DNA from: Caldicellulosiruptor changbaiensis
GTDB taxonomy: Bacteria > Bacillota > Thermoanaerobacteria > Caldicellulosiruptorales > Caldicellulosiruptoraceae
Assembly (NCBI RefSeq): GCF_003999255.1
Contig: NZ_CP034791.1
Span: 1 to 64,000 of the forward strand
Length of the DNA: 64,000 nucleotides
Direction of reading: 5' to 3'
Under the pieces are notes generated by a model that saw only the letters and a program-made list of their open reading frames with translations, did not search any database and was not told the DNA's origin. This document shows, piece after piece, positions 37,999 to 53,542 of the stretch. The translations under genes and the position numbers were made by a program. Each line of letters starts with the position of its first letter. Within the stretch, counting starts at the first letter, position 1.

Positions 37999-40446
37999 TT
38001 GTGCTTGGGGAAAGAAACTTATAGAAACTTAATTGCTGTGACGGCTCTTTTACATGATATTGGCAAATTTATCCGAAGAAGTGGGCTTGGATCTCTTTCC
38101 CACCAGGAAGAATCAAAAAAATTTTTAGAAAAGTATATGGAAAAGTTTAGGAACAAAAATCTATTTACCAATCAAGAACTAGAACTTATAAAAAGACTCA
38201 TAGAAAATCACCACAATATTGAAAAAATAAACAAAAGCTCAGCTTGTAGCGATGCAGAAAACAACTTACTGAAGATTTTAATTTATTCAGATTGGGACTC
38301 TGCATCCGAAAGAAGGCAAGAGAAAGAGACCAGTGGTTCTCAAGAATATGTACCAATTCACAGTATACTGTCTTTTATAAATGAAGCGTTTGATATTGAT
38401 GAGGCGCTTCGTCAGGGAGAAGAAGATAAAATTTTTGAACATATTTCGTATGTAAGAGCATTTTCACCTCAGGATGCCTTTGTCTATGAAAGGCCCGAAC
38501 TTAACCCTGCGCACCCTGTTGTGGAGGATAACCGAAAAAGGTTTGAAATTTTTGAAAGTGAGTTTAAGACTCTTATTGAGGAAAGTAAAAACCAATATGA
38601 ATTTGTATTAAGGTTGAATTACATTCTCAAAAAGCATACAACATACATTACTTCGAGCGGAAAGGAAAAGATAAGAGACATTTCGCTGTACCACCACAGT
38701 GCAACAACTGCCATGTTTGCAATCAACAGACTAATAGATTTTGAGCATGGTGAACAAATAGAACAACGCAAGCAATATGGTGCAGTTTATGGGAGATTGT
38801 TTAAAATTCAGGATTACATCTTTTCTGGTATAAATAGTAAAATTGAGAAACCTTTGAAAAGAATTATAACAAGGTCGCAGTTAGTGTCTATCCTCAACAT
38901 GTTAATTCCATACGATATAGTTAAAACATTAGATTTGTATCCTTTCAACATCATCTTTTATGGCGGAGGAGCATTTTTGATATTAATCCCTCTTTCATAC
39001 ATTTCAAAAGCTCAAGAGAGAATAAAGGAGATTAAAAAAACAGTAGATGAGATTTTCGAATCAAAGATTTATTTTGAAGCTGTTTATGAGAGAATTTCAG
39101 TATATGAAAATGGCTATGTTTTAGGTAATGAATTAAAAAGCTTGGGAGAGAAGCTCTCTGAAAAGAAATTTGCACGATCATTTGATACCATAGCTCCTTT
39201 TATTCACGAAAAATATTTTGAAAAAGCATATTTCAAATGTGAAAATTGCAAAATAAACTCTTCCAAGACGATATTATCTGGTGAGAATTTCGTATGTAAG
39301 TGCTGTCAAGTTGAAGAGAAATGGATGAACGAAGATATTACAAAGTTAAAATTTTTATTTGACCGCCTGTACGTTGAAAACATACAGGACCCAGAGTTGT
39401 TATCTGCTGGTGCTGACAGTAATAGTGCCTTGGTTTTGACCTTTACCAAAAGTGAGGCAGAAAATAGAAAGTGCATTGATACATTTTTACAGGGAAGAAA
39501 GTTTATTTACACGGCTGATTTTTGTCAAAGGTGTCCTGAATACGATGATTGTGCTGAGCCTTACAAACATATTCTTTCAGAAGAAGATGAAAGGCTTACA
39601 ATGAAATTGGCAAGTTTGGATTGCTTAGAAAAGATGAGTGACTCAGACAATATAATTGCAACAGCAAAGATGGACATTGACGATTTGGGTTTTATTCTGT
39701 ACAGTATTTATCCTATAAAGGTTTTACAGAATGAAAGCTATCCGTTTTCTATCACCAGACTTTCTTATGCGTCGTGGCTTTTAAATTTGTTTTTCACAGA
39801 AGGAGTTAAAAAAGTAATAAATGAAAAGTTCAAGGATGATGTCATGATTTTATATAGCGGTGGCGATGATCTTTTGCTCACCGGTGTGTGGTACAAGGTT
39901 ATAGAAGCAATTGACGAGATTGAAAAAGAATTTTCCCAGTTTGTAACAGGTAAAGTGATAGACAGAAAAAATGTTACGGTGACAGCTTCGATATATTTCC
40001 ACAGGGCACATGAAAATTTTGACAGTGTCTTGATAAAATTAAATGAAGGACTTGAAGAGGCTAAGAAAATAAAAAATAGAGTATTTCTGTTTGATAATGT
40101 GATAAGCTATCCAGAGCTGCGAAGAAGCTTAGATATATCTAAGAAAATTGTAGATTATGTAAATGAAAAAGTTTTAGGCAAACTAATTATAAGAAAATTG
40201 TTGAGAATACTTGAATGGAGAAAACTTAGAAATTGTTACCAAGAGATTAAGGCAACTTCCCACTATGTATATCTAAAAACAAGGCTTATAGAAAATAATA
40301 AAAACTTATCTGAAGATAAGAAAAAAGAGGTGATTGAATTTTTGGATTCTTTTATGAGCCTTCATACCGATAATTCTAATGTGTCAATGGCCATTGTTGC
40401 GATAAATATAGCGCTCAGGAAATTAATAAAAGAAAGTGAGGAGTGA
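37999..40446 (+). CDS. cas10: Cas10/Csm1, type III-A CRISPR effector
   Basis: Large subunit of the Csm complex, about 815 residues. N-terminal HD nuclease motif ALLHDIGKFIRR (H20-D21). The first palm-like domain is followed by a four-Cys zinc site (FKCENC...CKCC). The second palm carries an intact GGDD in ILYSGGDDLLLTG (residues 621-624), which makes cyclic oligoadenylates from ATP on target binding. Both activities are therefore predicted. The start codon is TTG, at 37999 or 38005; GGTGGTG at 37991 fits either. First gene of the cas operon, 8 bp before csm2. Confidence 0.95.
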   Translation: MCLGKETYRNLIAVTALLHDIGKFIRRSGLGSLSHQEESKKFLEKYMEKFRNKNLFTNQELELIKRLIENHHNIEKINKSSACSDAENNLLKILIYSDWDSASERRQEKETSGSQEYVPIHSILSFINEAFDIDEALRQGEEDKIFEHISYVRAFSPQDAFVYERPELNPAHPVVEDNRKRFEIFESEFKTLIEESKNQYEFVLRLNYILKKHTTYITSSGKEKIRDISLYHHSATTAMFAINRLIDFEHGEQIEQRKQYGAVYGRLFKIQDYIFSGINSKIEKPLKRIITRSQLVSILNMLIPYDIVKTLDLYPFNIIFYGGGAFLILIPLSYISKAQERIKEIKKTVDEIFESKIYFEAVYERISVYENGYVLGNELKSLGEKLSEKKFARSFDTIAPFIHEKYFEKAYFKCENCKINSSKTILSGENFVCKCCQVEEKWMNEDITKLKFLFDRLYVENIQDPELLSAGADSNSALVLTFTKSEAENRKCIDTFLQGRKFIYTADFCQRCPEYDDCAEPYKHILSEEDERLTMKLASLDCLEKMSDSDNIIATAKMDIDDLGFILYSIYPIKVLQNESYPFSITRLSYASWLLNLFFTEGVKKVINEKFKDDVMILYSGGDDLLLTGVWYKVIEAIDEIEKEFSQFVTGKVIDRKNVTVTASIYFHRAHENFDSVLIKLNEGLEEAKKIKNRVFLFDNVISYPELRRSLDISKKIVDYVNEKVLGKLIIRKLLRILEWRKLRNCYQEIKATSHYVYLKTRLIENNKNLSEDKKKEVIEFLDSFMSLHTDNSNVSMAIVAINIALRKLIKESEE

Positions 40447-40454
40447 TTTTTGTC

Positions 40455-41075
40455 ATGCCAAGACCCAATAACTTGCCCCATAGAGGTAATAATAGAAATG
40501 CTCAGAACAGGACTGCCACTTCACAAAATCAAAGATCATCAACTTTAATAATTGACGAAGATAAGCAGAGAGAATTGGAACAAAATAAACATGATTTATT
40601 TGAGTTAATTAAAGACGACAATGGTTTTTGTGATGAACATGGTATCAGATATGAGGTGGCAGAAAAAATAGAAAAGTTTGCAGAGTATCTGAATGCAGCT
40701 TATGTTCAAAATGATAGTGACGTTGGGGTGACATCTTCAAGCATCCGAAATATATATGACAACTATATTTCTATAAAACGCAAGTTCCAGACTGTTCAGT
40801 TAGAGCAAAGAGAGATAGAAGATGCAGAAACAAGAAAAGAAAATGCGTTTATGAAGATCAAACCCGAGCTTATATTTGTAAAATCTAAAGTGAATTACAC
40901 TGTTGAAAGAAAACTAAAAGAGGAGAGAAATGAAGCAAAAAAGCAGATTAAGGAACTTTCTTACAATGCTTTGAAGGAATTCATAAACATTTCAACCACT
41001 AAGATAACTACAAGCTACAATCAATTTGAAGCTTTTATAAAAATTTTTGAAACATTGGTTGGGTTTATGAAGTGA
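40455..41075 (+). CDS. csm2: Csm2, small subunit of the Csm complex
   Basis: About 206 residues from ATG 40455 (site AGGAGTG). The helical C-terminal 120 residues match Csm2: VAEKIEKFAEYLNAA, SSSIRNIYDNYISIKRKF, FMKIKPELIFVKSKVNY and FEAFIKIFETLVGFMK. The N-terminal 45 residues (PRPNNLPHRGNNRNAQNRTA) are a disordered, Asn/Arg-rich extension not needed for the fold. Csm2 forms the inner belly of the complex along the target RNA. Followed by csm3 after 33 bp. Confidence 0.9.
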   Translation: MPRPNNLPHRGNNRNAQNRTATSQNQRSSTLIIDEDKQRELEQNKHDLFELIKDDNGFCDEHGIRYEVAEKIEKFAEYLNAAYVQNDSDVGVTSSSIRNIYDNYISIKRKFQTVQLEQREIEDAETRKENAFMKIKPELIFVKSKVNYTVERKLKEERNEAKKQIKELSYNALKEFINISTTKITTSYNQFEAFIKIFETLVGFMK

Positions 41076-41108
41076 GATAATAAAAACTAAGAAATTGGAG
41101 GGTTTTTG

Positions 41109-41825
41109 ATGGAGAACAATGAGATGCTTTTAAAACAAATAATAGTGCTCAAAACAATAATGAAGATAAAAACAGGTTTGAGGATTGGTGGAAGCAGAGA
41201 AGAGTTGAAGATTGGAGATATAGACAATCCGGTGATAAGAGACCCTCTAACAAATGAGCCGTATATACCTGGTTCGTCGTTGAAAGGTAAAATGAGGTCG
41301 TCGTTAGAAATAACATTAAAAGGAACTAAAGATCCATGCAATTGTGGAAATTGTCCTATATGTGTACTCTTTGGAGCTGCTAAAAACAAACCTCAGTCAG
41401 GAGAAAAAGAAGTAACAAGGCTTATTGTAAGAGACAGCTTCATGACTGAAAAATCAAAAAAGCTTCTTTTGGATTTTGTTGGTGACTATGTCGAAATTAA
41501 AAAAGAGAATGTCATAAACAGAGTAACAGGAGTTGCGAAAGATCCGCGCACGCTTGACAGGATTCCCGCTGGCACAGAATTTGAATGCGAATTTGTACTC
41601 AGAATTTATCAAAAAGACCAGGAAAAAGTAGAAGAATATATTAAATACATTGAGACTGCATTAACGCTGATAGAACTTACTTACTTAGGTGGTTCTGGGA
41701 CAAGAGGTTATGGTAAGGTTGAGTTTGGAGAGAATGGAAATAAGATTATTGAGAAAAAGGTTTATGAAATAGTCAAATCAGAAGATGGTTTTGTAAAAGT
41801 TGAAGAAAAATCAGAAGATTCTTAA
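41109..41825 (+). CDS. csm3: Csm3, RAMP backbone subunit and target RNase
   Basis: 238 residues from ATG 41109 (site GGAGGG). It has an RRM-like RAMP fold with the signatures LKIGDIDNPVIRDPLTNEPY, IPGSSLKGKMRS and the C-terminal glycine loop GGSGTRGYGKVEF. The Asp in GDIDNPV (about residue 39) lines up with the residue that cuts target RNA every 6 nt in other Csm3 proteins. A cysteine group CNCGNCPIC near 78-86 probably binds zinc, also usual. Several copies line the crRNA. Confidence 0.94.
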   Translation: MENNEMLLKQIIVLKTIMKIKTGLRIGGSREELKIGDIDNPVIRDPLTNEPYIPGSSLKGKMRSSLEITLKGTKDPCNCGNCPICVLFGAAKNKPQSGEKEVTRLIVRDSFMTEKSKKLLLDFVGDYVEIKKENVINRVTGVAKDPRTLDRIPAGTEFECEFVLRIYQKDQEKVEEYIKYIETALTLIELTYLGGSGTRGYGKVEFGENGNKIIEKKVYEIVKSEDGFVKVEEKSEDS

Positions 41826-41852
41826 CTGTCAGTAAAAAGGGGAAGAAAAAAG

Positions 41853-42788
41853 ATGATATACAGAGCAGATTTTTTGATAAGTTCGTCATCTTCAAAACTC
41901 ATATCTCCTGTTATTTTTGGAGCGATTGCAGATAAGGTTTTTGAGCTAACAGAAGAAAAACAGGCAAAAGAACTTGTTTTTGACATGGCACAAAATGTTC
42001 TTATTTCAGATGCACTACCTTCAGAAGAGGAAGAAGATGATTTTATAAGATATTTCTACGTTCCAAGAATTATACCGCCCTATGAAGATGATCAAAATTC
42101 CCTTAGTTTGCGTGAAAGAAGAGAGCTTGCGAGAAAGAACAAAAAACTTGCGAAGAGTGTAAGTCTGGTTGAAATAGACAATAGCGGAATTTTAAAAGAG
42201 GCAGATCCTTCAAAAGTAAAAGATCCAGTTGATTTTTACCGCATAGGAATTCAGGTAAACAGAAAAAGCGCTGCATCAGAAGTGGGTATTTTTTTCTACC
42301 ATCAAGAATTCAGATTTTCTAAAAAGCAATGTTATTCAATTTATATCCAATGTAAAAAGCCGAGTCTTGTTAACAAAATAGAAGAGTGTTTTAAAGTCAT
42401 TGAACTTACTGGATTTGGGCCAGATGTGTCAATCGGTAAGGGGAAAATCTCATTTTTAAGGCACAATCAAAGAATACTTTGCCGAGATGAAGTGACTGAG
42501 CAGTTCTTTGACAGTGAGCCGGATGTTGAAAAAGAATATGTAAACATAGCTTCAACAATCCTTTTTGACAAAGCAGTTTCAGCATGTCAATTCAAAAGTT
42601 ATCAAACATTTAGATATGACAGCAAGGGCTATGGTGTATTCAAACCCCCATACTTTTGTGCAGAAAGAAGTTCAGTTGTAGTTCCAAAAGGTAAAGATTT
42701 GAGTTTTTTGATAGAGTACAAAGGAAGATTTATATATACTTGCATTTTTCCGTTGAGGCTCATTCAAATAGGTGGTGAAAAGATTTGA
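41853..42788 (+). CDS. csm4: Csm4, crRNA 5'-handle binding RAMP subunit
   Basis: 311 residues. It has the RAMP start IYRADFLISSSSSKLISPVIFGAI and the glycine-rich loop ELTGFGPDVSIGKGKISF, typical of Csm4, which caps the 5' handle end and contacts Cas10. An acidic stretch (SEEEEDDFIRYFYVPRIIPP) lies near 50-70. Ribosome binding site AAAAGGGGAAG. Its stop overlaps the start of csm5 by 4 bp, so the two are translationally coupled. Confidence 0.9.
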   Translation: MIYRADFLISSSSSKLISPVIFGAIADKVFELTEEKQAKELVFDMAQNVLISDALPSEEEEDDFIRYFYVPRIIPPYEDDQNSLSLRERRELARKNKKLAKSVSLVEIDNSGILKEADPSKVKDPVDFYRIGIQVNRKSAASEVGIFFYHQEFRFSKKQCYSIYIQCKKPSLVNKIEECFKVIELTGFGPDVSIGKGKISFLRHNQRILCRDEVTEQFFDSEPDVEKEYVNIASTILFDKAVSACQFKSYQTFRYDSKGYGVFKPPYFCAERSSVVVPKGKDLSFLIEYKGRFIYTCIFPLRLIQIGGEKI

Positions 42789-43987
42789 AAGAAAAGTATT
42801 CTGTAAAAACATACGAGTTACGTTTGAGGGCTTTGACAGACTTTTGTGTGAGCGCAAATCAAGACGCTGTTGTGGAAAGCTCAGACTACATCATACATGA
42901 CAAGTATGCTTACATCATAGATAGCAAGGCTGTATTTAATATGCTAAAAGATGGGATAATTTCTGAAAGAGATCTTGAGGATGTAAAAGAGTTTTTGAAA
43001 AATAACCCTGAATATTTGGAAAAGTATTTTAAAACCCGCAGATTAGAACTTGCCAGAAACTATGAGAATATGCTAAGTATAAGTAGATTTTGGAGATATT
43101 TGGATATAAAAGAGAATGAGGTAACAGAAAATTATGCAGTTCCTGCAAGTACAATTAAAGGTATCCTGAATACAGGGTTTTTAAGTTTCTTTTTAGAAGA
43201 TATCGAGTACGTGTATGCAAGAGGACAAAAAGCAAGATTGAATTTAAAATCATTAAAAGTTAACAATGCCCAGGCAAGAATTGATAACACACAAAGCCTT
43301 TTTAAAACTTTTGAAAGTAAAGAGGACTTTCAAAAAGGTTTAAAAGTTTTCTACGCTGCTCAAAGTAGTTGGGAAGAAAAGGGATATTTAGATGAAATAA
43401 GAGAAGCTGAAGATATATTTGATTCTATCGAAAAAAGTCTTTTTAGAACTGTAGAGTGTTTAGATGCTGTATTTAAAGAAGGAAGTTTCATAGTTAAAAA
43501 GGTGAAGAGATTAAGCAGGGCGAACAACAGGTCAGCCCTACCTCAATACTTTGAGCTTGCTCAAAAAGGAAGTCTTTTTGCAGGAAAGGTGCAAGTTTCA
43601 GTACCTCATGACGGAGAACCATTGAGTTCTTTAAGCTTTCTTTACGAAGATTCAAACTACATTGAAGACCTAAACGTAATGGATATTTGCATTGAAGGTT
43701 TGAAAATATACAGCAAAAAATTGGTAAAAGCCGAGGAAAAATTCTTTGCTCAGAAGATTGGTAGTTTAAATAGTCAGAGTCAAAACTTTTACAATGATCT
43801 TTGGTCTGAGTGCGAAAGAGGCAATATTGTAATAAAGATAGGAAAAAGCGGCATTCATGCAAAAAGCTTTATGTCATTTGACTCTAATAATTTAGAAAAA
43901 AATGACTTTTTTCCTTATACCATTAACATTGACGACGAAAATAAGCTTCCTATAGGATGGGTAAAATTAGAAATCGAGGAAGAATGA
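42785..43987 (+). CDS. csm5: Csm5, RAMP subunit at the crRNA 3' end
   Basis: 400 residues with a TTG start at 42785 after GGTGGTG, overlapping the csm4 stop. It has the Csm5 pattern: YELRLRALTDFCVSANQDAV, YIIDSKAVFNML, and VPASTIKGILNTGFLSFFLE (the RAMP IPGSSIKG equivalent, here VPASTIKG). The C-terminal half keeps FPYTINIDDENKLPIGWVKLEIEEE. Csm5 binds the 3' end of the crRNA and recruits trimming nucleases in other systems. Followed by cas6 after 3 bp. Confidence 0.88.
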   Translation: MKEKYSVKTYELRLRALTDFCVSANQDAVVESSDYIIHDKYAYIIDSKAVFNMLKDGIISERDLEDVKEFLKNNPEYLEKYFKTRRLELARNYENMLSISRFWRYLDIKENEVTENYAVPASTIKGILNTGFLSFFLEDIEYVYARGQKARLNLKSLKVNNAQARIDNTQSLFKTFESKEDFQKGLKVFYAAQSSWEEKGYLDEIREAEDIFDSIEKSLFRTVECLDAVFKEGSFIVKKVKRLSRANNRSALPQYFELAQKGSLFAGKVQVSVPHDGEPLSSLSFLYEDSNYIEDLNVMDICIEGLKIYSKKLVKAEEKFFAQKIGSLNSQSQNFYNDLWSECERGNIVIKIGKSGIHAKSFMSFDSNNLEKNDFFPYTINIDDENKLPIGWVKLEIEEE

Positions 43988-43990
43988 AAT

Positions 43991-44728
43991 ATGCGATATA
44001 AAATAAGATTTTACACAGAAAATGATATGAATATAAGCATACATTACAATATTGAACTGGCAAAGGCAGTTAGAAATTTGCTCAACCCCAAATACCGTGA
44101 ATTTGTTGACAAAGGTGGGTTTAGCTTAGGGAAAACTATTTACAAACCATATACATTTTCACGTTTATTTCCTCAGGAATACAGGGTTATAAATTCAAAG
44201 TTAGAAATTAAAAAAGGATATGTTGACCTTATTGTGTCTAGCATCGATGAAAATTTTTGGTTTTCATTTCTTGAGGGACTACTCAAGGAGAAGAAAATAA
44301 CCCTTTATGGTAATACAATGTGCTTGGATTCGTTTGCTATAAAGAAGTTTAAAAGGAAAAACAAAATGATAGTAAAAACTTTATCTCCAATTATGTGTAG
44401 GATAAATCTTTCAGAACAAACGAAAAATGAGTTTGAACTGTTTTTGAAAGGAAATGTGGTAAATAAAGCATGCGTTTTTAAAAAAAGAATCTTTTCTTTA
44501 GATGATATTAATCTCAAATTTTTTGAAAATACGGTAAAAGAAACTGTGGTTATATTGAATGGCACTCCAAACAAAGCATACTCAGGTCTAATTTTGCTTG
44601 ATGGTGACGAAGATATTGTTGAGGTTGCGTATTTTACAGGGATAGGGCCGAAAAATGCTCTTGGGTTTGGCTGTGTTGAAGATATAAAGCTCAAAAATGA
44701 AAGGGTCATATATAAGCTTTCTTTGTAA
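43991..44728 (+). CDS. cas6: Cas6 endoribonuclease (pre-crRNA processing)
   Basis: 245 residues with two RRM-like halves. The N-terminus has MNISIHYNIELAKAVRNLL, with a His (about residue 18) that could be the catalytic base. The C-terminal glycine-rich loop is TGIGPKNALGFGCVEDI (about 216-232), the Cas6 signature. It would cut within each repeat 8 nt before the spacer, leaving the ATTGAAAC handle present in all intact arrays here. It lies inside the csm operon, 3 bp from csm5. Confidence 0.92.
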   Translation: MRYKIRFYTENDMNISIHYNIELAKAVRNLLNPKYREFVDKGGFSLGKTIYKPYTFSRLFPQEYRVINSKLEIKKGYVDLIVSSIDENFWFSFLEGLLKEKKITLYGNTMCLDSFAIKKFKRKNKMIVKTLSPIMCRINLSEQTKNEFELFLKGNVVNKACVFKKRIFSLDDINLKFFENTVKETVVILNGTPNKAYSGLILLDGDEDIVEVAYFTGIGPKNALGFGCVEDIKLKNERVIYKLSL

Positions 44729-44782
44729 ATTGGTGAAAAGTTACCATACGAAAAATTAAAGTTTTGGAGGAAATGATGTGAG

Positions 44783-45694
44783 ATGGGAAAGAAGTTTTTG
44801 AGTTTTTTAGGGGCAAACAACTACACACCTAGCACATACACGTTAAATATTTTGGATAAAAATGATTCAAAGTATGCAAAGTACACGCAGGTAGTCTTAC
44901 TAGAGAAGATTTGCAATCAGTGGGATGAAGATGCAAAAGGGTTCATATTTGTTACACAAGAAGCAAAGAGGGTAAACTGGGATGGTGGAGATGAAAATAA
45001 TCAAAGTTTGAAAAGAGAAATTGAAAAACTAAAAGAGGCAGGAACTATTAAATTTGAAGTTGAAGCCGTTGAAATACCCAATGGTTTTTCGGAACAAGAT
45101 ATTTGGAAGATTTTTGAAATAGTAGTTAATCATATTGAGGAAGAGGACGAGATAGTCTTTGACATAACTCATGGCTATAGGTATTTACCAATGCTTATTG
45201 TTGTTATGTTAAGCTATCTAAAAACAGTAAAAAATATTAATATTTTGGGTATATATTATGGACTTTTTGAAGTAAAGGATAGCAACAAGCCAATTCTAAA
45301 TTTTACTCCATTCATAGACCTTTTGGATTTGAGCTTTGGAGTGAGTGCATTCCTGCATTTTGGAGATGGTTCGTATCTTGAAAATACATTGCTTTGTAAA
45401 AAGGATGTTTGTGTTAAAAACGAAAAGCAAAAACTTATCCAAAGTGGTTTGGATATAGAGATAGCTGAAAAGAAGATTGAAAAGATGTTTGCTTCAAACG
45501 AGTGGTTCAAAGGAATAAACGATTTAATCAGCTTTGCAAAGTCTTTGAGAAATTTTACTGATTCTATCTTTACTCTAAGAGGCAGATGTACACAGAATCG
45601 CGATGAGTCAATTTTTGCTGCTCACAAAGATTTAAGAGAAAAAATTGAAAAGGTTCAAAACTTGGATGCAGATATTTCAAGCCTCTCAAATTAA
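44783..45694 (+). CDS. CARF-domain effector, DxTHG (TM1812/Csx2-type) family, sensor part
   Basis: 303 residues. The CARF fold starts KKFLSFLGANNYTPSTYTL, and the family signature DITHGYRYLPML places D127, T129, H130 and G131 (DxTHG). The CARF domain would bind cyclic oligoadenylate made by Cas10. It then runs into a helical region and stops at 45694 without any HEPN motif; the HEPN part is the next gene, overlapping by one base (TAATG). Related proteins carry both parts in one chain. GGAGG lies 12 nt upstream. It is the seventh gene of the csm unit. Confidence 0.85.
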   Translation: MGKKFLSFLGANNYTPSTYTLNILDKNDSKYAKYTQVVLLEKICNQWDEDAKGFIFVTQEAKRVNWDGGDENNQSLKREIEKLKEAGTIKFEVEAVEIPNGFSEQDIWKIFEIVVNHIEEEDEIVFDITHGYRYLPMLIVVMLSYLKTVKNINILGIYYGLFEVKDSNKPILNFTPFIDLLDLSFGVSAFLHFGDGSYLENTLLCKKDVCVKNEKQKLIQSGLDIEIAEKKIEKMFASNEWFKGINDLISFAKSLRNFTDSIFTLRGRCTQNRDESIFAAHKDLREKIEKVQNLDADISSLSN

Positions 45695-46173
45695 TGGTGG
45701 AAAAGATAAAACAGAAAACTCAGAAGTTTGAAAATGCCGATAACCTTATAGTTGGGGAAGAAGTTATCAAGTGGTGCAAAGAGTATTCCCTTATAGCTGA
45801 AGGATATGTTGCGTTAGAGGAAACTATGATAACCTATCTTTGCAGGGTTTTAGGAGTTGATGAGAATGATTCAGATGTTAGAAAACTTGTTTCTGCTGCA
45901 GCAACCAAAAAGAGTAAGCAGAAAAATGAACAAATAGAGACAAAGAATATATATGAAGCTGAGACAAAAGAGAATGAAAAAATACATGAGATGGCTAAAA
46001 GTATTCCGATAGAAATTGCAGGTTTTATTGAGAGGATAAAGGCAAAAAGAAACTCAGTGATGCATTTTGGCTTTACTAAAGACAGGATAGGGAGTGGGAA
46101 AATAATCAAAGAGTTTGAGGAGCTTGTTGAAGAGGCACTCAAATTACTATCTCAAACAAAAAATCAAGTTTAA
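45694..46173 (+). CDS. HEPN-domain partner of the CARF effector
   Basis: 159 residues, all helical, beginning on the TAATG overlap with the CARF gene. The HEPN RNase motif R-x4-H is visible as AKRNSVMHFGF (R119, H124). A charged Lys/Glu linker (KKSKQKNEQIETKN) lies near 72-95. It corresponds to the C-terminal half of one-chain DxTHG proteins. The two proteins would need to bind each other for cyclic-oligoadenylate-controlled RNA cleavage. Coupled translation would keep them equimolar. Alternatively this is a recent frameshift split; no other lesion is visible. Confidence 0.8.
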   Translation: MVEKIKQKTQKFENADNLIVGEEVIKWCKEYSLIAEGYVALEETMITYLCRVLGVDENDSDVRKLVSAAATKKSKQKNEQIETKNIYEAETKENEKIHEMAKSIPIEIAGFIERIKAKRNSVMHFGFTKDRIGSGKIIKEFEELVEEALKLLSQTKNQV

Positions 46174-47628: not shown

Positions 47629-48588
47629 TCAATTTCTATGCTTTACACGAAGTTCTTTTATTCTCTCAAGCGAAAGCCCTGTAATCTCTGCTATCTCCTC
47701 ATCTTTGTAACCTTTTAAAATCATCCTCTCAGCTGTCTCTATTCTGCTCTGCTCAAAACCTTGCTGAAGTCCTTGCTGAAGTCCTTCAAAAATCAACTCT
47801 TCTTTTATCTTTCTCAAATTCTGAAATAGTGGCATAACTTTTTCACCCCCTCTTACACTCTCATCAATCGCTCTTTTGGCAGCCTCAACTTCTATCTCAT
47901 CAAGCTCCCTCAAAGCAGCTGGCAAACATACCTTCAATACCTCTATCTCCTTCTCCTCTGCACCCAATAAATATTCTCCAAGCTCTAAAATTAGCCTCTC
48001 TAACTCCTCATACCTTTTTATCCTGTTGAGCTTCAATATTAAGCTCAGTATGTCTTTTACCTGCAAAATGCTTTCTGCTTGGTTTAAGTCAATCAATATA
48101 TACTCAAAATCAATTACGCAATTTCCAAACTCCTCAAATCCTAAAATCTTTTCCTTAAGTCTTCTTGCGGCTGTCCACCTGTCTTCCCCGTCGTAAAATA
48201 CTATCGGCACAACTGCCGGTAATGTAAATCCCTTTTTCTTTATTTCCCCTCTGTCAAAATCCTTGATATAGTCTCTGTATATATCTGTGATGTAAAACAA
48301 AAGCCTCAAGGGCATTGAATGGTCAACTGAAGACTGGTGTTCAAACAAAATGTAAAAGATAATTTCTTTTTCTTTTAAGCTTACTTTATAAAGCAAATCA
48401 CTTTCTTCTTGAGAAAAATCAGGTAGCACATAGCTTTTGTCAATTCTTTCAAGCTGGTCTTCTGTAAGATTTTTGAATATTCCAATCTCATCAAGCCTTT
48501 TCAGAAGCCTGAGGAAAATGCTTTTGTTAGAGAATATGTATTTGTACTCAAGGTCGTTTATGTTATGAGGGAGCTGGTTATTATTCAT
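47629..48588 (-). CDS. Rpn family recombination-promoting nuclease / putative transposase
   Basis: About 319 residues from ATG 48588 (site CAGGTG). It is a PD-(D/E)xK-type protein: DLEYKYIFSNKSIFLRLLKRL, ESDLLYKVSLKEKEIIFYILFEHQSSVD (the E-x-Q nuclease pattern) and AVVPIVFYDGEDRWTAARRLKEKI. It ends with a coiled coil of repeated QQGLQQGFEQ and a helix-turn-helix-like ETAERMILKGYKDEEIAEIT. Rpn proteins cut DNA and promote RecA-independent recombination in E. coli. It lies between array 4's leader and array 5's oldest end. Confidence 0.88.
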   Translation of the reverse strand: MNNNQLPHNINDLEYKYIFSNKSIFLRLLKRLDEIGIFKNLTEDQLERIDKSYVLPDFSQEESDLLYKVSLKEKEIIFYILFEHQSSVDHSMPLRLLFYITDIYRDYIKDFDRGEIKKKGFTLPAVVPIVFYDGEDRWTAARRLKEKILGFEEFGNCVIDFEYILIDLNQAESILQVKDILSLILKLNRIKRYEELERLILELGEYLLGAEEKEIEVLKVCLPAALRELDEIEVEAAKRAIDESVRGGEKVMPLFQNLRKIKEELIFEGLQQGLQQGFEQSRIETAERMILKGYKDEEIAEITGLSLERIKELRVKHRN

Positions 48589-48636
48589 TGTTTTCACCTG
48601 AGGAGTTCTTCTGAAAACATTATAGCAGATGGGAAG

Positions 48637-48657
48637 GAAAATATCAAACATATTTTC
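48637..48657. repeat. Inverted repeat shared by two Rpn gene upstream regions
   Basis: GAAAATAT-CAAAC-ATATTTTC, perfect 8-bp arms. The identical sequence, with several more matching bases on each side, occurs at 60530-60550, at nearly the same distance from the other Rpn start. It may mark the mobile element's outer end or an operator. Confidence 0.7.
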
Positions 48658-48672
48658 TTATCCTCTTCTTCT

Positions 48673-49499
48673 GCATCAATCCCCAAAGGGAAGGCTACAA
48701 ACATATGCTGCGACTTGGACAGCTGGTACAAATCTTGTGTTTCAATCCCCAAAGGGAAGGCTACAAACTGAAACTGCTTTTGTTTTTGAAGATGCAAAAG
48801 TTATGTTTCAATCCCCAAAGGGCAGGCTACAAACAATGATAGAAGAATACATTATGAAATTAAAAAATCCGTTTCAATCCCCAAAGGGCAGGCTACAAAC
48901 CAAAATAGTAGGGATTTAATTCCGAGTAATTTTGTAGTTTCAATCCCCAAAGGGCAGGCTACAAACATTAGGTGGAACGGTAACAGTTCAATTAAGGAAA
49001 GACGTTTCAATCCCCAAAGGGCAGGCTACAAACCTTTGCTGGCAAGATATATACGCAAGAAAGAAGAATGTTTCAATCCCCAAAGGGCAGGCTACAAACT
49101 AGGATTCGAAGAGGGCTTGACTTTGGTTATGCAGTGTTTCAATCCCCAAAGGGCAGGCTACAAACCACTCTGGGCTGACCTACTGCTTGGTGAAAGGCCA
49201 GTTTCAATCCCCAAAGGGCAGGCTACAAACCAGCAAACTTGACATGTATAATGAGGCTACAAAAAATGCGTTTCAATCCCCAAAGGGCAGGCTACAAACA
49301 GTAAGGAGGGGATTTTATGACAGTATGGGAAATGGTGTTTCAATCCCCAAAGGGCAGGCTACAAACGAATGACATTGTCAGAAATTGCGAGATATGCATT
49401 GCAAGTTTCAATCCCCAAAGGGCAGGCTACAAACATATTAGCTTAAATACCAAAGACCAAGTGAGAGTAGTTTCAATCCCCAAAGGGCAGGCTACAAAC
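48673..49499 (-). CRISPR. CRISPR array 5 (13 repeats, 12 spacers)
   Basis: Repeats start at 48673 (altered end GCATC), 48739, 48805, 48871, 48937, 49004, 49070, 49136, 49201, 49270, 49337, 49405 and 49470. The two oldest carry GGGA, the remaining eleven GGGC, the reverse of array 4. No terminator is seen between its oldest end and the Rpn gene 85 bp away, so the CRISPR transcript may read into that gene. Confidence 0.97.
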
Positions 49500-49973: not shown

Positions 49974-50924
49974 ATGTGCCTGCTTGTATATGACGTTATG
50001 AGGATAGCAAAAGAAAATCACTCTTCGGTATGTGTTCGTTATTCCAATTCATTCTATCAGAGAAAAAGCACTTGTGAAAAGTGTCTTCCAAAGGTTCACT
50101 TCGGAAGGAAGAACAATAGCAATGTTCGTGATTATGACTGCAAGAATATGATATACTATTATTGCGGAAGATACTCTCTTAAGCATGCTGGCGAGATCTT
50201 CATGCTTCTTGAACAGATTAACTCCAGGCTTCCAGACAATCCCAGGATTCTTTCAGTTGGTTGTGGACCGTGCACAGATCTTTTTGGATTTGAAGCGTAC
50301 TATAGAAAGTACAAGCCTAAAAGTATGATTGAATACCATGGATTTGAAAAGAGCATGCTTTGGAATGAGGTTCACAGATTTATCATACAACACGGCAAGA
50401 AGCATAAGTTGGCAAGAGTTGAAGTGACGTACATGGATGCGATTAATGAATTTCATAAGATTGAGGATATTATGAGGTGCGAAAAGCCCAATATCATCTC
50501 ATTTCAGTACGTTCTTTCAGACATGGCAAAATACTATGATGTAGCTTTTGTTAAGAGGTTTGCTGAGAAATTTGTTGTAAAAGCTTTCGATATATTGCCA
50601 AAATCTACTATGATAATTTTCAACGATACAAACGTCACACAACAGTATGCTTTGAGGAATCCTGAAGAAGTAAAAGGAAGAGAAATCCTTGATTATTTGG
50701 CTCGAAAGTTTTGGACCAATTACAATATCGCAGTGTTAAAATATTACTTTCCATACAACAGTGACCTAAGCCTTTGTTTTGGTTGTGCTCATTCAAAGTG
50801 TGATATTGACATGGAAAGTGTTCCAGAGGAATTAAAGAACTATTTTGAGATGTGGAATCAGTACAGAAGTGCACAGCTTGTGTTTGTTAAAAATGCTGAT
50901 GTTAGTTTAGCAAAAAGGGGCTGA
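49974..50924 (+). CDS. SAM-binding (methyltransferase-like) protein of unknown target
   Basis: 316 residues from ATG 49974 (site AAAGGGAATG). The N-terminal 75 residues carry cysteines (CEKCLPKVHFG ... DYDCKN ... YYYCGRYS) that could bind metal. A Rossmann motif ILSVGCGPCTDLFGFEAYY follows at about 91-109, with YHGFEKSMLWNEVH as the strand-2 region. IFNDTNVTQQYAL lies later. It is a class I methyltransferase-like fold, but I do not recognise the family. Its stop is 1 bp from the start of a DUF1848 gene, so the two form a tight pair beside the type III locus. Confidence 0.6.
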   Translation: MCLLVYDVMRIAKENHSSVCVRYSNSFYQRKSTCEKCLPKVHFGRKNNSNVRDYDCKNMIYYYCGRYSLKHAGEIFMLLEQINSRLPDNPRILSVGCGPCTDLFGFEAYYRKYKPKSMIEYHGFEKSMLWNEVHRFIIQHGKKHKLARVEVTYMDAINEFHKIEDIMRCEKPNIISFQYVLSDMAKYYDVAFVKRFAEKFVVKAFDILPKSTMIIFNDTNVTQQYALRNPEEVKGREILDYLARKFWTNYNIAVLKYYFPYNSDLSLCFGCAHSKCDIDMESVPEELKNYFEMWNQYRSAQLVFVKNADVSLAKRG

Positions 50925-50925
50925 G

Positions 50926-52026
50926 ATGGTGATAATAAGTGCAAGTAGAAGGACAGATATTCCAGCCTTCTATGGCGATTGGTTTATAAACAGAATAAAA
51001 GAAGGTTTTGCAATGTACCGAAATCCTATGAGACTGACTCAGGTTTTTGCAGTATCGCTCCATCCAAAAGATGTTGATGCCATAGTTTTCTGGACAAAGA
51101 ATCCTAAGAATTTTTTGGACAAGCTCAAATACCTGGAGGAATACACTTATTATTTTCAGTTCACAATTACCCCTTATGGAAAAGACATAGAGCCTGGCAT
51201 TCCTTCGAAGGATGAGGTTATCGAAACCTTTATAGAGCTTTCAAACATGATAGGCAAAAAGAGAGTTATCTGGCGGTATGACCCTATAATTATCACAGAT
51301 AAGATGGATTTGGAATACCACAAAGAAAAGTTCGAAGAGCTTTGCGAAAAGCTTTCACCCTATACGCAAAAGTGCATAATAAGCTATGTTGACTTTTACA
51401 GCAAGGCAGTGGATGAGTTAAATAGAATAAATGCCAAAGATCTTGCGGCAGAAGAGCTTTACAATCTCTTTGGTGCGATGGGCAGCATTGGGAAAAAGTA
51501 TAACCTCAGTGTTGAGACCTGTGCAGAAGATCTACCGGTCGAACAACTGGGGCTAAAAAAAGCGCATTGTGTAGATGGCGAGCTTATTTTGCAGCTAAAA
51601 AGAGAAAAGGACCCATACTGGACAGCAAGCTTTAAAAAAGACAAAAACCAGCGTCAGGTGTGCGGATGTGTCCAGAGTATAGACCTTGGGATATTCAACA
51701 CATGCAAACACTTTTGCACTTACTGCTATGCAAATTTTAGCAGAAATTCAATCCTCAAAAATGCGGAAAAATATGATGTCAACTCACCACTTCTGTGTAG
51801 TAGACTTGATCTTGAAAAGGATGAAATAAGAATAAGGGAAAAAGATGGCTCTATAAAACTTGACAGGGAAGCTATTTTGAAAGCTGAGGCAAACCAAAAA
51901 GAATTAATGACACAGCTTGATTTTTACGAATATGAAAAAATTTCTCTTGAAGATAATTCTAATAATTGGCTTGTGGAAAAAATTTTGGGTTATCTCAAAA
52001 AAACAAAACAGGGAACTTTGTTGTAA
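50926..52026 (+). CDS. DUF1848 family protein
   Basis: 366 residues. It opens VIISASRRTDIPAFYGDWF and continues VSLHPKDVDAIVFWTKNPKNF and VIWRYDPIIITDKMD, the conserved DUF1848 text, with a TIM-barrel-like character. Near the C-terminus it has C246-G-C248 and a C-x3-C-x2-C group at 260, 264 and 267 (TCKHFCTYCYANF), likely an iron-sulfur site of the radical-SAM spacing but at an unusual position. The biological role of DUF1848 is unknown. It is directly downstream of the SAM-binding protein gene, so a joint modification reaction is plausible. Confidence 0.85.
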   Translation: MVIISASRRTDIPAFYGDWFINRIKEGFAMYRNPMRLTQVFAVSLHPKDVDAIVFWTKNPKNFLDKLKYLEEYTYYFQFTITPYGKDIEPGIPSKDEVIETFIELSNMIGKKRVIWRYDPIIITDKMDLEYHKEKFEELCEKLSPYTQKCIISYVDFYSKAVDELNRINAKDLAAEELYNLFGAMGSIGKKYNLSVETCAEDLPVEQLGLKKAHCVDGELILQLKREKDPYWTASFKKDKNQRQVCGCVQSIDLGIFNTCKHFCTYCYANFSRNSILKNAEKYDVNSPLLCSRLDLEKDEIRIREKDGSIKLDREAILKAEANQKELMTQLDFYEYEKISLEDNSNNWLVEKILGYLKKTKQGTLL

Positions 52027-52296: not shown

Positions 52297-53542
52297 CTAA
52301 GTATTGTAAACATCACCTCTTTCTTGATATATTTGACCTTTGCTGAGCATGGCAAAGATCAAAGGAATTAAGCGTCTTGCGGTTAGGACGAGGGCACGTT
52401 TATGCTGATGCTTGGTAACCTCTGAGAACTTCTTGTTGTAGAAGGCTTTGTAGCGTACTGTGTGCACCCTTACACAGTTAGCAGCTTCAACAAGATAGTA
52501 TCTCAGGTATTGGTTACCACACTTAGCTAATGAGACATCTTGGGCATTGAAGTTGCCTGATTGGTACTGAGTCCAAACAAGGCCAGAATACTTTGCCAAA
52601 GCAGCTTCATTTTTGAAGCGCTTGATATCACCGATTTCAGCGATGATGCCGGCTGCAAGAACATCTCCTATGCCAGGGACGGTTGTTAATGTTTGAGAGA
52701 AAGCTTTAAGAAGTTTTGAGATTTCTTTGTCGAGTTTTTTAAGTTGTTCTTGCATAAATCTAATGTTTTCAAGGGTCATAGACAAAGCTAAGTCATTTGC
52801 CTCAGCCAACAGAGGATGTAATCTGTATGAACGCTTGAGCCTCGGTTTTAAGTATTTCAGCGATTTTATTGACATCTGAGAGTCTATTGTTGCCGTTATC
52901 GGATACGAATTTAATTAAGTCTTCTAAAGGCATAGAAGCGATATCATCAGGTGTAAAGTTTTCGATGATAGCACAAGAAGCTTTACCGAAGATATCTGAA
53001 AATGGACAGTCTTGAGAATAAGTAGAGAATTTAAGGTATATGAGATTGAGAGCTCTGTTTTTTTCGCGAGTTAGATTGTGAACAAGATGATAGCGCATTC
53101 TGGTAAGGCGTTGTAGTGCAGCATATTTAAAATCAGGCAAAGGTGTTGGGTTGAGTTTGCTGAACCTGACACATTCAGCGATGATAATTGCATCGATGCT
53201 ATCTGTTTTAGGCAAGAAAGTGTAGATTTTTTTGAAGCCTTTGACTATGCTTGGGTTGAGAACATAAAAAGTTGGTTTATATGGCAGCAGTTCAGATGAA
53301 GAAGCAAGATACAAGTGCAGATGCCAAGCGTAATGTGAAGTTGCTTCCATGCCAAACTTAATACAGGATAGATTATACTGGCTGAGGCAGTCAATAACTC
53401 TTTTGATTAATTCGTTAGCGCCTTCTTGATCATTAGGCAAGGAAAAAGGTTTTTTAATCAAGTGATTACCGGCATCATCGATGAAGAAGATAGAATTTGA
53501 CTGACTACTGATATCAATGCCCACGATTAAAGTATTTGGCAA
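52297..53542 (-). pseudogene. IS110 family transposase 1, frameshifted
   Basis: Two overlapping frames make one IS110 transposase. The first (53542 to 52802, TTG start after GGAGGT) has the DEDD-type RuvC part: LIVGIDISSQSNSIFFID, FGMEATSHYAWHL and PKTDSIDAIIIAECVRF. The second (to 52297) has the Tnp_IS110 C-terminal part: LTTVPGIGDVLAAGIIAEIGDIKRF and AKYSGLVWTQYQSG. The frame changes near 52825-52832, between AQA and SYRL. IS110 genes are normally one frame, so this copy is probably inactive unless frameshifting occurs. Confidence 0.88.

What the first reader, a model, noticed from the sequence alone, without database searches (positions are those of the whole stretch)
49974..52026. SAM-binding protein and DUF1848 protein as a tight pair beside the type III locus
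An unfamiliar protein with a SAM-type motif and N-terminal cysteines is followed 1 bp later by a DUF1848 protein whose C-x3-C-x2-C group has radical-SAM spacing but lies near the C-terminus. The pair sits between a CRISPR leader and an IS110 element. It could be an undescribed modification or defence module.
Basis: partly seen in the sequence, partly recalled or inferred. Interest (0 to 1): 0.65.

Follow-up and report, generated by a model that had tools for sequence, protein, structure and literature searches.

The report
Radical-SAM and methyltransferase-like immune gene pair
Two adjacent genes, one for a rearranged radical-SAM-type enzyme and one for a cysteine-rich methyltransferase-like protein, recur as a unit inside or beside bacterial antiviral systems (type III CRISPR, restriction-modification), which points to an uncharacterised immune enzyme.

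Summary
A 316-aa protein with a SAM-binding motif and N-terminal cysteines (49974-50924) is followed after 1 bp by a DUF1848 protein (50926-52026) whose CxxxCxxC is at residues 260-267. The pair recurs: the first protein's relatives, found without reference to DUF1848, sit next to DUF1848 in the same order in other Bacillota families and in contigs of the viral collections. Both genes are under purifying selection in the genus. A predicted structure makes DUF1848 a radical-SAM-type barrel whose cluster-binding cysteines come after the barrel (circularly permuted); the first protein is a class I methyltransferase fold, nearest METTL17/Rsm22. Contexts are immune: inside a III-B operon (G210), inside another type III operon with a CARF gene between them (G053), behind hsdMSR (two loci), fused to RnlA-like domains (two loci). 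DUF1848 alone occurs in further type III loci and beside UG25-type reverse transcriptases. PADLOC already lists each protein separately (C3a159, RTasDUF1848), so the pieces are known; my searches found no description of the pair. Best reading: a two-subunit radical-SAM modification enzyme serving several immune systems. Chemistry and substrate are inferred.

The parts
49974..50924 (+). P0001, cysteine-rich class I methyltransferase-like partner protein (316 aa)
   Evidence: PADLOC C3a159 E 1.3e-105; AF2 model pLDDT 69.7, methyltransferase fold
50031..50141 (+). codons of the N-terminal cysteine cluster, C20, C34, C37 and C56 of P0001 (probable metal or Fe-S site)
   Evidence: conserved in 11, 10, 9 and 11 of 11 clade-A relatives; residues 19-55 are poorly predicted, so the site is inferred
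50253..50279 (+). SAM-binding motif I, SVGCGPCTD (residues 94-102)
   Evidence: alignments
50926..52026 (+). P0002, DUF1848 protein (366 aa), predicted circularly permuted radical-SAM-type barrel
   Evidence: PF08902 345.5 bits; AF2 pLDDT 86.2; VIA-align ranks 1-20 all radical SAM enzymes
51520..51669 (+). codons of the four other invariant cysteines C199, C215, C246, C248 (possible auxiliary cluster)
   Evidence: invariant in the 30 sequences of A4 and the 15 of A3; role inferred
51703..51726 (+). C260-x3-C264-x2-C267, putative radical-SAM cluster motif
48672..49499 (.). CRISPR array next to the pair
   Evidence: RF01315 repeats 48739-49499; degenerate first repeat at 48672 read
37999..46173 (+). 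type III-A module: Cas10, Csm3, Csm5, Cas6 and a split CARF/HEPN csx1
   Evidence: PADLOC matches

Best explanation
The pair encodes a two-subunit enzyme used as an accessory by several antiviral systems, type III CRISPR among them. P0002 is a circularly permuted radical-SAM enzyme: C260, C264 and C267 hold a [4Fe-4S] cluster that cleaves SAM to a 5'-deoxyadenosyl radical, and C199, C215, C246 and C248 may hold a second cluster. P0001 is a SAM-binding methyltransferase-fold subunit with its own cysteine metal site that presents the substrate, passes electrons, or methylates in tandem. The substrate is most likely RNA, DNA or a nucleotide made or met during infection. Shown here: the conserved pair, its selection, the predicted folds and the contexts. 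Inferred: cluster binding, radical chemistry, complex formation, substrate, and immune effect.
For: Pair recurrence: profile searches with the first protein alone found it outside the genus in G210, Natronincola L060, gut contig L061, L062, L063 and L068, and with a wider profile in G207 and G053. DUF1848 follows directly in all of these but G053, where one CARF gene lies between. Fold: VIA ranks 1-20 for P0002 are all radical SAM (best Z 10.0, rmsd 3.7, 188 aligned), and model residue 1 aligns to chain residues 66-173. Partner: methyltransferase fold, top 8 rows METTL17/Rsm22, Z 15.1-16.7. Context: III-B operon in G210, type III operon in G053, hsdMSR in L203 and L204, RnlA-like fusions in L060 and L062, UG25 RT with a methyltransferase-like N-terminal part overlapping DUF1848 in L154. 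DUF1848 within 12 kb of cas10: 4 of 26 loci in cas10-bearing genomes against 0.33 expected. Selection: dN/dS about 0.1-0.3.
Against: Most DUF1848 genes in the phylum sample have neither partner nor cas genes nearby, so the parent function may lie outside immunity. In 5 of 10 genus genomes with a partner match the partner is broken while a DUF1848 gene stays intact, so DUF1848 does not always need it. No radical-SAM chain is in Foldseek's best 50. Sequence tests of the permutation were inconclusive. The P0001 model is weak (pLDDT 69.7, 7 sequences), worst at the cysteines. The 12-kb limit was chosen after seeing the distances.
Confidence: 0.45

Rival explanations
1. Housekeeping or stress repair: DUF1848 is a radical-SAM nucleic-acid repair enzyme (like spore photoproduct lyase), the partner a substrate adaptor, and the CRISPR neighbourhood reflects only shared mobile islands.
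For: DUF1848 occurs in 90 of 299 phylum genomes, mostly without defence neighbours in the fetched loci. Some copies lie near alkylation-repair genes: Ogt-like in L107 and L073, AlkA-like in L103 (names recalled from sequence; homology search), AlkB annotated in Planktothrix L159. Spore photoproduct lyase is among the VIA matches (Z 9.1).
Against: The partnered form is concentrated in immune or mobile contexts, including positions inside cas operons. Repair neighbours were found in only 2 of the 72 fetched cellular loci.
Confidence: 0.3
2. A viperin-like or signal-type effector: the pair makes or alters a small nucleotide (a chain terminator or a SAM-derived messenger) when the immune system is triggered.
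For: Viperin is among the VIA matches (6b4c_K, Z 8.7). A lone CARF protein is next to DUF1848 in L110, L111 and L115. [quoted passage not shown]
Against: The PADLOC viperin model matched only 28 residues at E 0.036. No CARF or SAVED domain was found in P0001 or P0002. There is no direct evidence on substrate.
Confidence: 0.15
3. A RiPP or protein-maturation pair, unrelated to immunity.
For: RiPP maturases such as SkfB appear among the VIA matches.
Against: I noticed no conserved small precursor ORF in the ORF listings of the pair loci; the loci carry cas, hsd and RT genes instead.
Confidence: 0.05

Closest known systems
Radical SAM enzymes (biotin synthase, PFL-activating enzyme, spore photoproduct lyase, viperin)
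   Same: CxxxCxxC and a partial-barrel fold (VIA Z 10.0, 9.7, 9.1, 8.7)
   Different: The motif follows the barrel strands instead of preceding them; no significant sequence match to PF04055 (14 bits, cut-off 29.5)
PADLOC C3a159 (type III-associated candidate, 'methyl transferase')
   Same: P0001 matches over the full length, E 1.3e-105
   Different: The listing names one protein and no partner or mechanism; in my relatives search it matched one genus of 32 (10 of 61 genomes), while related proteins occur in other immune contexts
PADLOC RTasDUF1848 and UG25-type reverse transcriptases
   Same: P0002 matches E 5.8e-51; DUF1848 lies beside such RTs in 5 of the 72 fetched loci
   Different: In the window the methyltransferase-like protein stands alone and no RT is fused to it
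METTL17 / Rsm22
   Same: Methyltransferase-like fold plus a cysteine metal site; best structural matches of P0001 (Z 16.7). METTL17 binds a [4Fe-4S] cluster (PMC11046306, passages read)
   Different: Their cysteines lie in a loop late in the fold and in a C-terminal domain (PMC8171064, passages read); those conserved in P0001 are mostly N-terminal, and there is no such C-terminal domain
TcmP with DUF5131 (three-Cys-motif pair; recalled, not from a call)
   Same: The idea of a partner protein for a C-terminal three-Cys enzyme
   Different: P0001 and P0002 match no NCBIfam model up to E = 1

Membership tests
DUF1848 (PF08902) | score above Pfam's curated cut-off | tested here: met
   345.5 bits against 30.5
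Radical SAM superfamily | conserved CxxxCxxC | tested here: met
   C260, C264, C267 invariant in 30 and 15 sequences
Radical SAM superfamily | radical-SAM-type barrel fold | tested here: met
   predicted model; VIA ranks 1-20 all radical SAM, best Z 10.0. Foldseek's own best 50 list none
Radical SAM superfamily | PF04055 above cut-off, motif before the barrel | tested here: not met
   14 bits against 29.5 over 18 profile positions; motif at residues 260-267. Therefore not filed as a member, only as working like one
Radical SAM superfamily | [4Fe-4S] cluster and reductive SAM cleavage | not testable with these tools
   needs biochemistry
PADLOC C3a159 | match to the model | tested here: met
   E 1.3e-105, residues 1-297
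Class I methyltransferase fold | Rossmann-like methyltransferase fold with SAM motif | tested here: met
   model pLDDT 69.7; 984 of 1000 chains at Z 8 or more, the rows shown being largely methyltransferases; motif
Class I methyltransferase fold | methyl transfer activity | not testable with these tools
   needs biochemistry
METTL17/Rsm22 | cysteine cluster in the late loop of the fold | tested here: not met
   C268, C271, C276 of P0001 are not among the conserved columns; the conserved ones are C20, C34, C37, C56; site in Rsm22
Type III CRISPR ancillary effector | encoded in type III loci | tested here: met
   G210 and G053 inside operons; window beside array and III-A module
Type III CRISPR ancillary effector | CARF or SAVED sensor domain in the protein | tested here: not met
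   none in P0001 or P0002; a separate CARF gene lies beside DUF1848 in L110, L111, L115
Viperin (pVip) | match to the PADLOC model | tested here: inconclusive
   E 0.036 over 28 residues at the cysteine motif only; VIA Z 8.7
TcmP (name recalled) | NCBIfam match | tested here: not met
   0 families up to E = 1

The most novel reading that the evidence does not exclude
A portable radical-SAM/methyltransferase cassette is a shared biochemical arm of unrelated immune systems: type III CRISPR, type I restriction-modification, RnlA-like proteins and UG25 reverse transcriptases each recruit the same permuted radical-SAM enzyme, through standalone or fused methyltransferase-fold adaptors, to make a chemical mark or lesion on nucleic acid that no known immune system makes.
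Probability: 0.25. Interest if true: 0.88.

Novelty: new variant of a known kind. Interest (0 to 1): 0.62.

Why it matters
Radical-SAM enzymes in immunity are known mainly through viperins (recalled). If the pair works as proposed, a family present in about 30% of the sampled phylum genomes (90 of 299) gains a first functional frame, type III CRISPR gains a radical-chemistry accessory, and two unexplained PADLOC entries turn out to be two halves of one machine. It also gives a testable handle (cluster, SAM cleavage, deletion phenotype) on a family for which no paper in the held library even names DUF1848.

Tried and rejected
Cysteine-order test: I moved the C-terminal cysteine segment of five DUF1848 proteins to the front and scanned Pfam. 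PF04055 did not improve (P0002 E 0.77 against 0.06 native; L060 0.088 against 0.029, though its match now spans 133 profile positions; L074 0.033 against 0.029; L063 no match either way; L093 0.74 against none). A wrong cut point gave 0.081. A profile of seven such sequences found no radical-SAM chain in the PDB up to E = 10. So the permutation rests on the predicted fold and motif position, not on sequence profiles.

Partner clades as one family: hhalign links A-B (2.7e-9), A-F (7.4e-8) and D-E (4.1e-8) are good, A-C (2e-6) and A-D (7.3e-6) weaker. A generic methyltransferase (L199, itself found by the A6 profile) scored 1.5e-6 against A, HsdM 0.06. The weaker links may be only shared fold, so clades C to E could have been recruited separately.

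CRISPR link as sampling artefact: C3a159 could have been listed only because one genus was sampled; its list also holds a putative invertase beside this locus (C3a178). The G210 and G053 operons argue against this. No relatives were found on plasmids or with clade D in viral contigs. The first viral scan with A1 found none. The class searches around G053 and G083 held only 1 and 3 genomes. PDB sequence searches gave nothing. Families absent from the Foldseek or VIA lists are not excluded. Papers for C3a and UG/DRT origins (recalled: Shah 2019, Mestre 2022) are not held. Novelty searches.

Full report
OBSERVATION. The two frames are real and lie as described: P0001 at 49974-50924 and P0002 at 50926-52026, one base apart. 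P0002 is DUF1848. P0001 has no Pfam or NCBIfam match up to E = 1 but matches the PADLOC model C3a159 'methyl transferase' at E 1.3e-105; P0002 matches RTasDUF1848 at 5.8e-51. So both had been seen, separately, as defence candidates. The genome is one 2.9-Mb contig; I take it for Caldicellulosiruptor from memory, not from a call.

IN THE GENUS. With the C3a159 model, 10 of 12 genomes of the genus match and none of the 49 others searched. In 5 of the 10 the partner frame is intact; in the other 5 it is broken or truncated. DUF1848 stays intact in G001, G002, G005 and G009 although the partner beside it is broken. In G003 the intact partner and DUF1848 are about 36 kb apart. In G004 an intact DUF1848 is followed by a partner remnant, and other remnants lie about 19 kb away. 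Between intact copies dN/dS is 0.10-0.31 for P0001 (8 of 10 pairs; dS saturated in 2) and 0.08-0.20 for P0002 against eight relatives. Both proteins are therefore maintained, and DUF1848 outlives its partner.

BEYOND THE GENUS. Searches with the first protein alone, blind to DUF1848, found relatives in G210, Natronincola L060 (the only one of 88 pattern matches confirmed), the fecal contig L061, and IMG/VR contigs L062, L063 and L068 (one search found 4 loci: two copies of L063's, L068's and L062's). A wider profile matched 11 of 398 phylum genomes in 5 of 266 genera, adding G207, G053 and a weak G107 (E 8.6e-5), which looks like a generic methyltransferase without DUF1848. In G210, G207, L060, L061, L062, L063 and L068 DUF1848 follows directly on the same strand, from a 4-bp overlap to 25 bp apart; in G053 one CARF gene lies between. 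Starting from DUF1848 instead: 9 of 36 viral-collection loci have such a protein directly upstream (some are copies of one another; in L069 it is split). Of 72 cellular loci fetched (60 from the phylum sample, 12 of the 34 genomes with a match in the class of G210), 6 have a standalone methyltransferase-like partner (L104, L106, L115, L118, L167, L171) and 5 have a large RT beside DUF1848 (L143, L145, L147, L154, L172). The RT class is checked only for L154 (UG25) and L172 (RVT_1). Most DUF1848 genes in the sample therefore have no such partner.

IMMUNE CONTEXTS. Window: III-A module and CRISPR array upstream; a second cas10 of the genome begins about 13.5 kb beyond the pair. G210 (L163): Cas6, Cas1, then the pair, then Cmr1, Cas10, Cmr4, Cmr6, CARF-RelE and CARF-HEPN-CARF, all on one strand. 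G053 (L115): CARF-PDDEXK, partner, lone CARF, DUF1848, Csx1, Cas10, Csm3-like. G121 (L110): Cas10 ... Cas6, DUF1848, lone CARF, without partner. G083 (L111) has DUF1848 with the lone CARF, and Cas6 6.5 kb away. G432 (L176): a short DUF1848, a CARF protein and Cas10. L203 and L204: pair behind type I hsdM, hsdS and hsdR. L060 and L062: the partner is fused to RnlA-like domains (E 8.3e-5 and 1.1e-5, both just under Pfam's cut-off); L060 lies among TIR, patatin and dynamin genes. L072 and L206 sit beside integrases (Pfam for L072; L206 by eye). For cas10 distance: 70 DUF1848 loci outside the genus, 26 of them in genomes with cas10; 4 lie within 12 kb (G210, G121, G083, G053) where 0.33 are expected, Poisson P 0.0004, or 0.005 if G121 and G083 (one genus) count once. 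In the class sample 1 of 12 against 0.10 (27 loci). The limit was set after seeing the data, genome sizes are rounded, and loci covering under 150 profile positions were dropped.

MECHANISM. The P0002 model (pLDDT 86.2, 30 sequences) gives VIA matches whose first 20 rows are all radical SAM enzymes (Z 8.9-10.0). The model's first residue aligns to residues 66-173 of those chains, past the N-terminal cysteine segment (positions of their cysteines recalled), while C260, C264 and C267 come after the barrel: a circular permutation. Foldseek alone lists other barrels in its best 50, and sequence tests failed to sharpen the point. Seven cysteines are invariant, enough for a second cluster. P0001 (pLDDT 69.7, 7 sequences) is methyltransferase-like, with METTL17/Rsm22 in the top 8 rows. 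METTL17 carries a [4Fe-4S] cluster (passages read). In P0001 the conserved cysteines lie elsewhere, and other partner clades have theirs at different positions. Electron transfer to radical-SAM enzymes from other redox proteins has been described (PMC10470005, abstract and outline). My reading is therefore a two-subunit radical-SAM modification enzyme; a nucleic-acid or nucleotide substrate is inferred from the company it keeps (RT, RnlA, CRISPR, R-M).

NOVELTY. No paper in the held library contains 'DUF1848'; a type III survey does not mention radical SAM or methyltransferase; further searches found no description. The library lacks most subscription papers, including the two likely sources of the PADLOC models. 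I rate it a new variant of a known kind.

Noticed in passing
window 44783-46173: csx1 is split into a CARF frame (44783-45694) and a HEPN frame (45694-46173) that overlap by one base; PADLOC matches both to parts of the same CARF-HEPN models.
   Followed up: partly
G000:C1:65550-67976: A second type III-A cas10 lies beyond the window, so the pair is between two cas10 loci about 10.5 and 13.5 kb away.
   Followed up: no
window 47629-48651: A reverse-strand ORF between two CRISPR arrays matches PADLOC C3a178 'putative invertase'.
   Followed up: no
L110, L111, L115: A standalone CARF protein of 140-150 aa, matching the last domain of CARF-HEPN-CARF proteins, lies next to DUF1848 in two lineages.
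   Followed up: partly
L060 8130-11708 and L205 6232-9804: A three-gene set, TPR protein, RnlA-methyltransferase fusion and DUF1848, appears in both; the TPR label for L205 is by eye.
   Followed up: partly
L107, L073, L103, L159: Standalone DUF1848 genes with DNA-alkylation repair genes close by: Ogt-like, Ogt-like, AlkA-like (names recalled) and annotated AlkB.
   Followed up: partly
L161 6325-8945: On a Roseburia plasmid, protein-ADP-ribose hydrolase, a Sir2-type protein and DUF1848 lie in a row.
   Followed up: no
LR756501.1 319196-319948: DUF1848 is encoded in 735-kb uncultured phage records.
   Followed up: no
window 52297-53542: The IS110-like element downstream of the pair is read as two overlapping frames, so it may be broken (not tested).
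   Followed up: no
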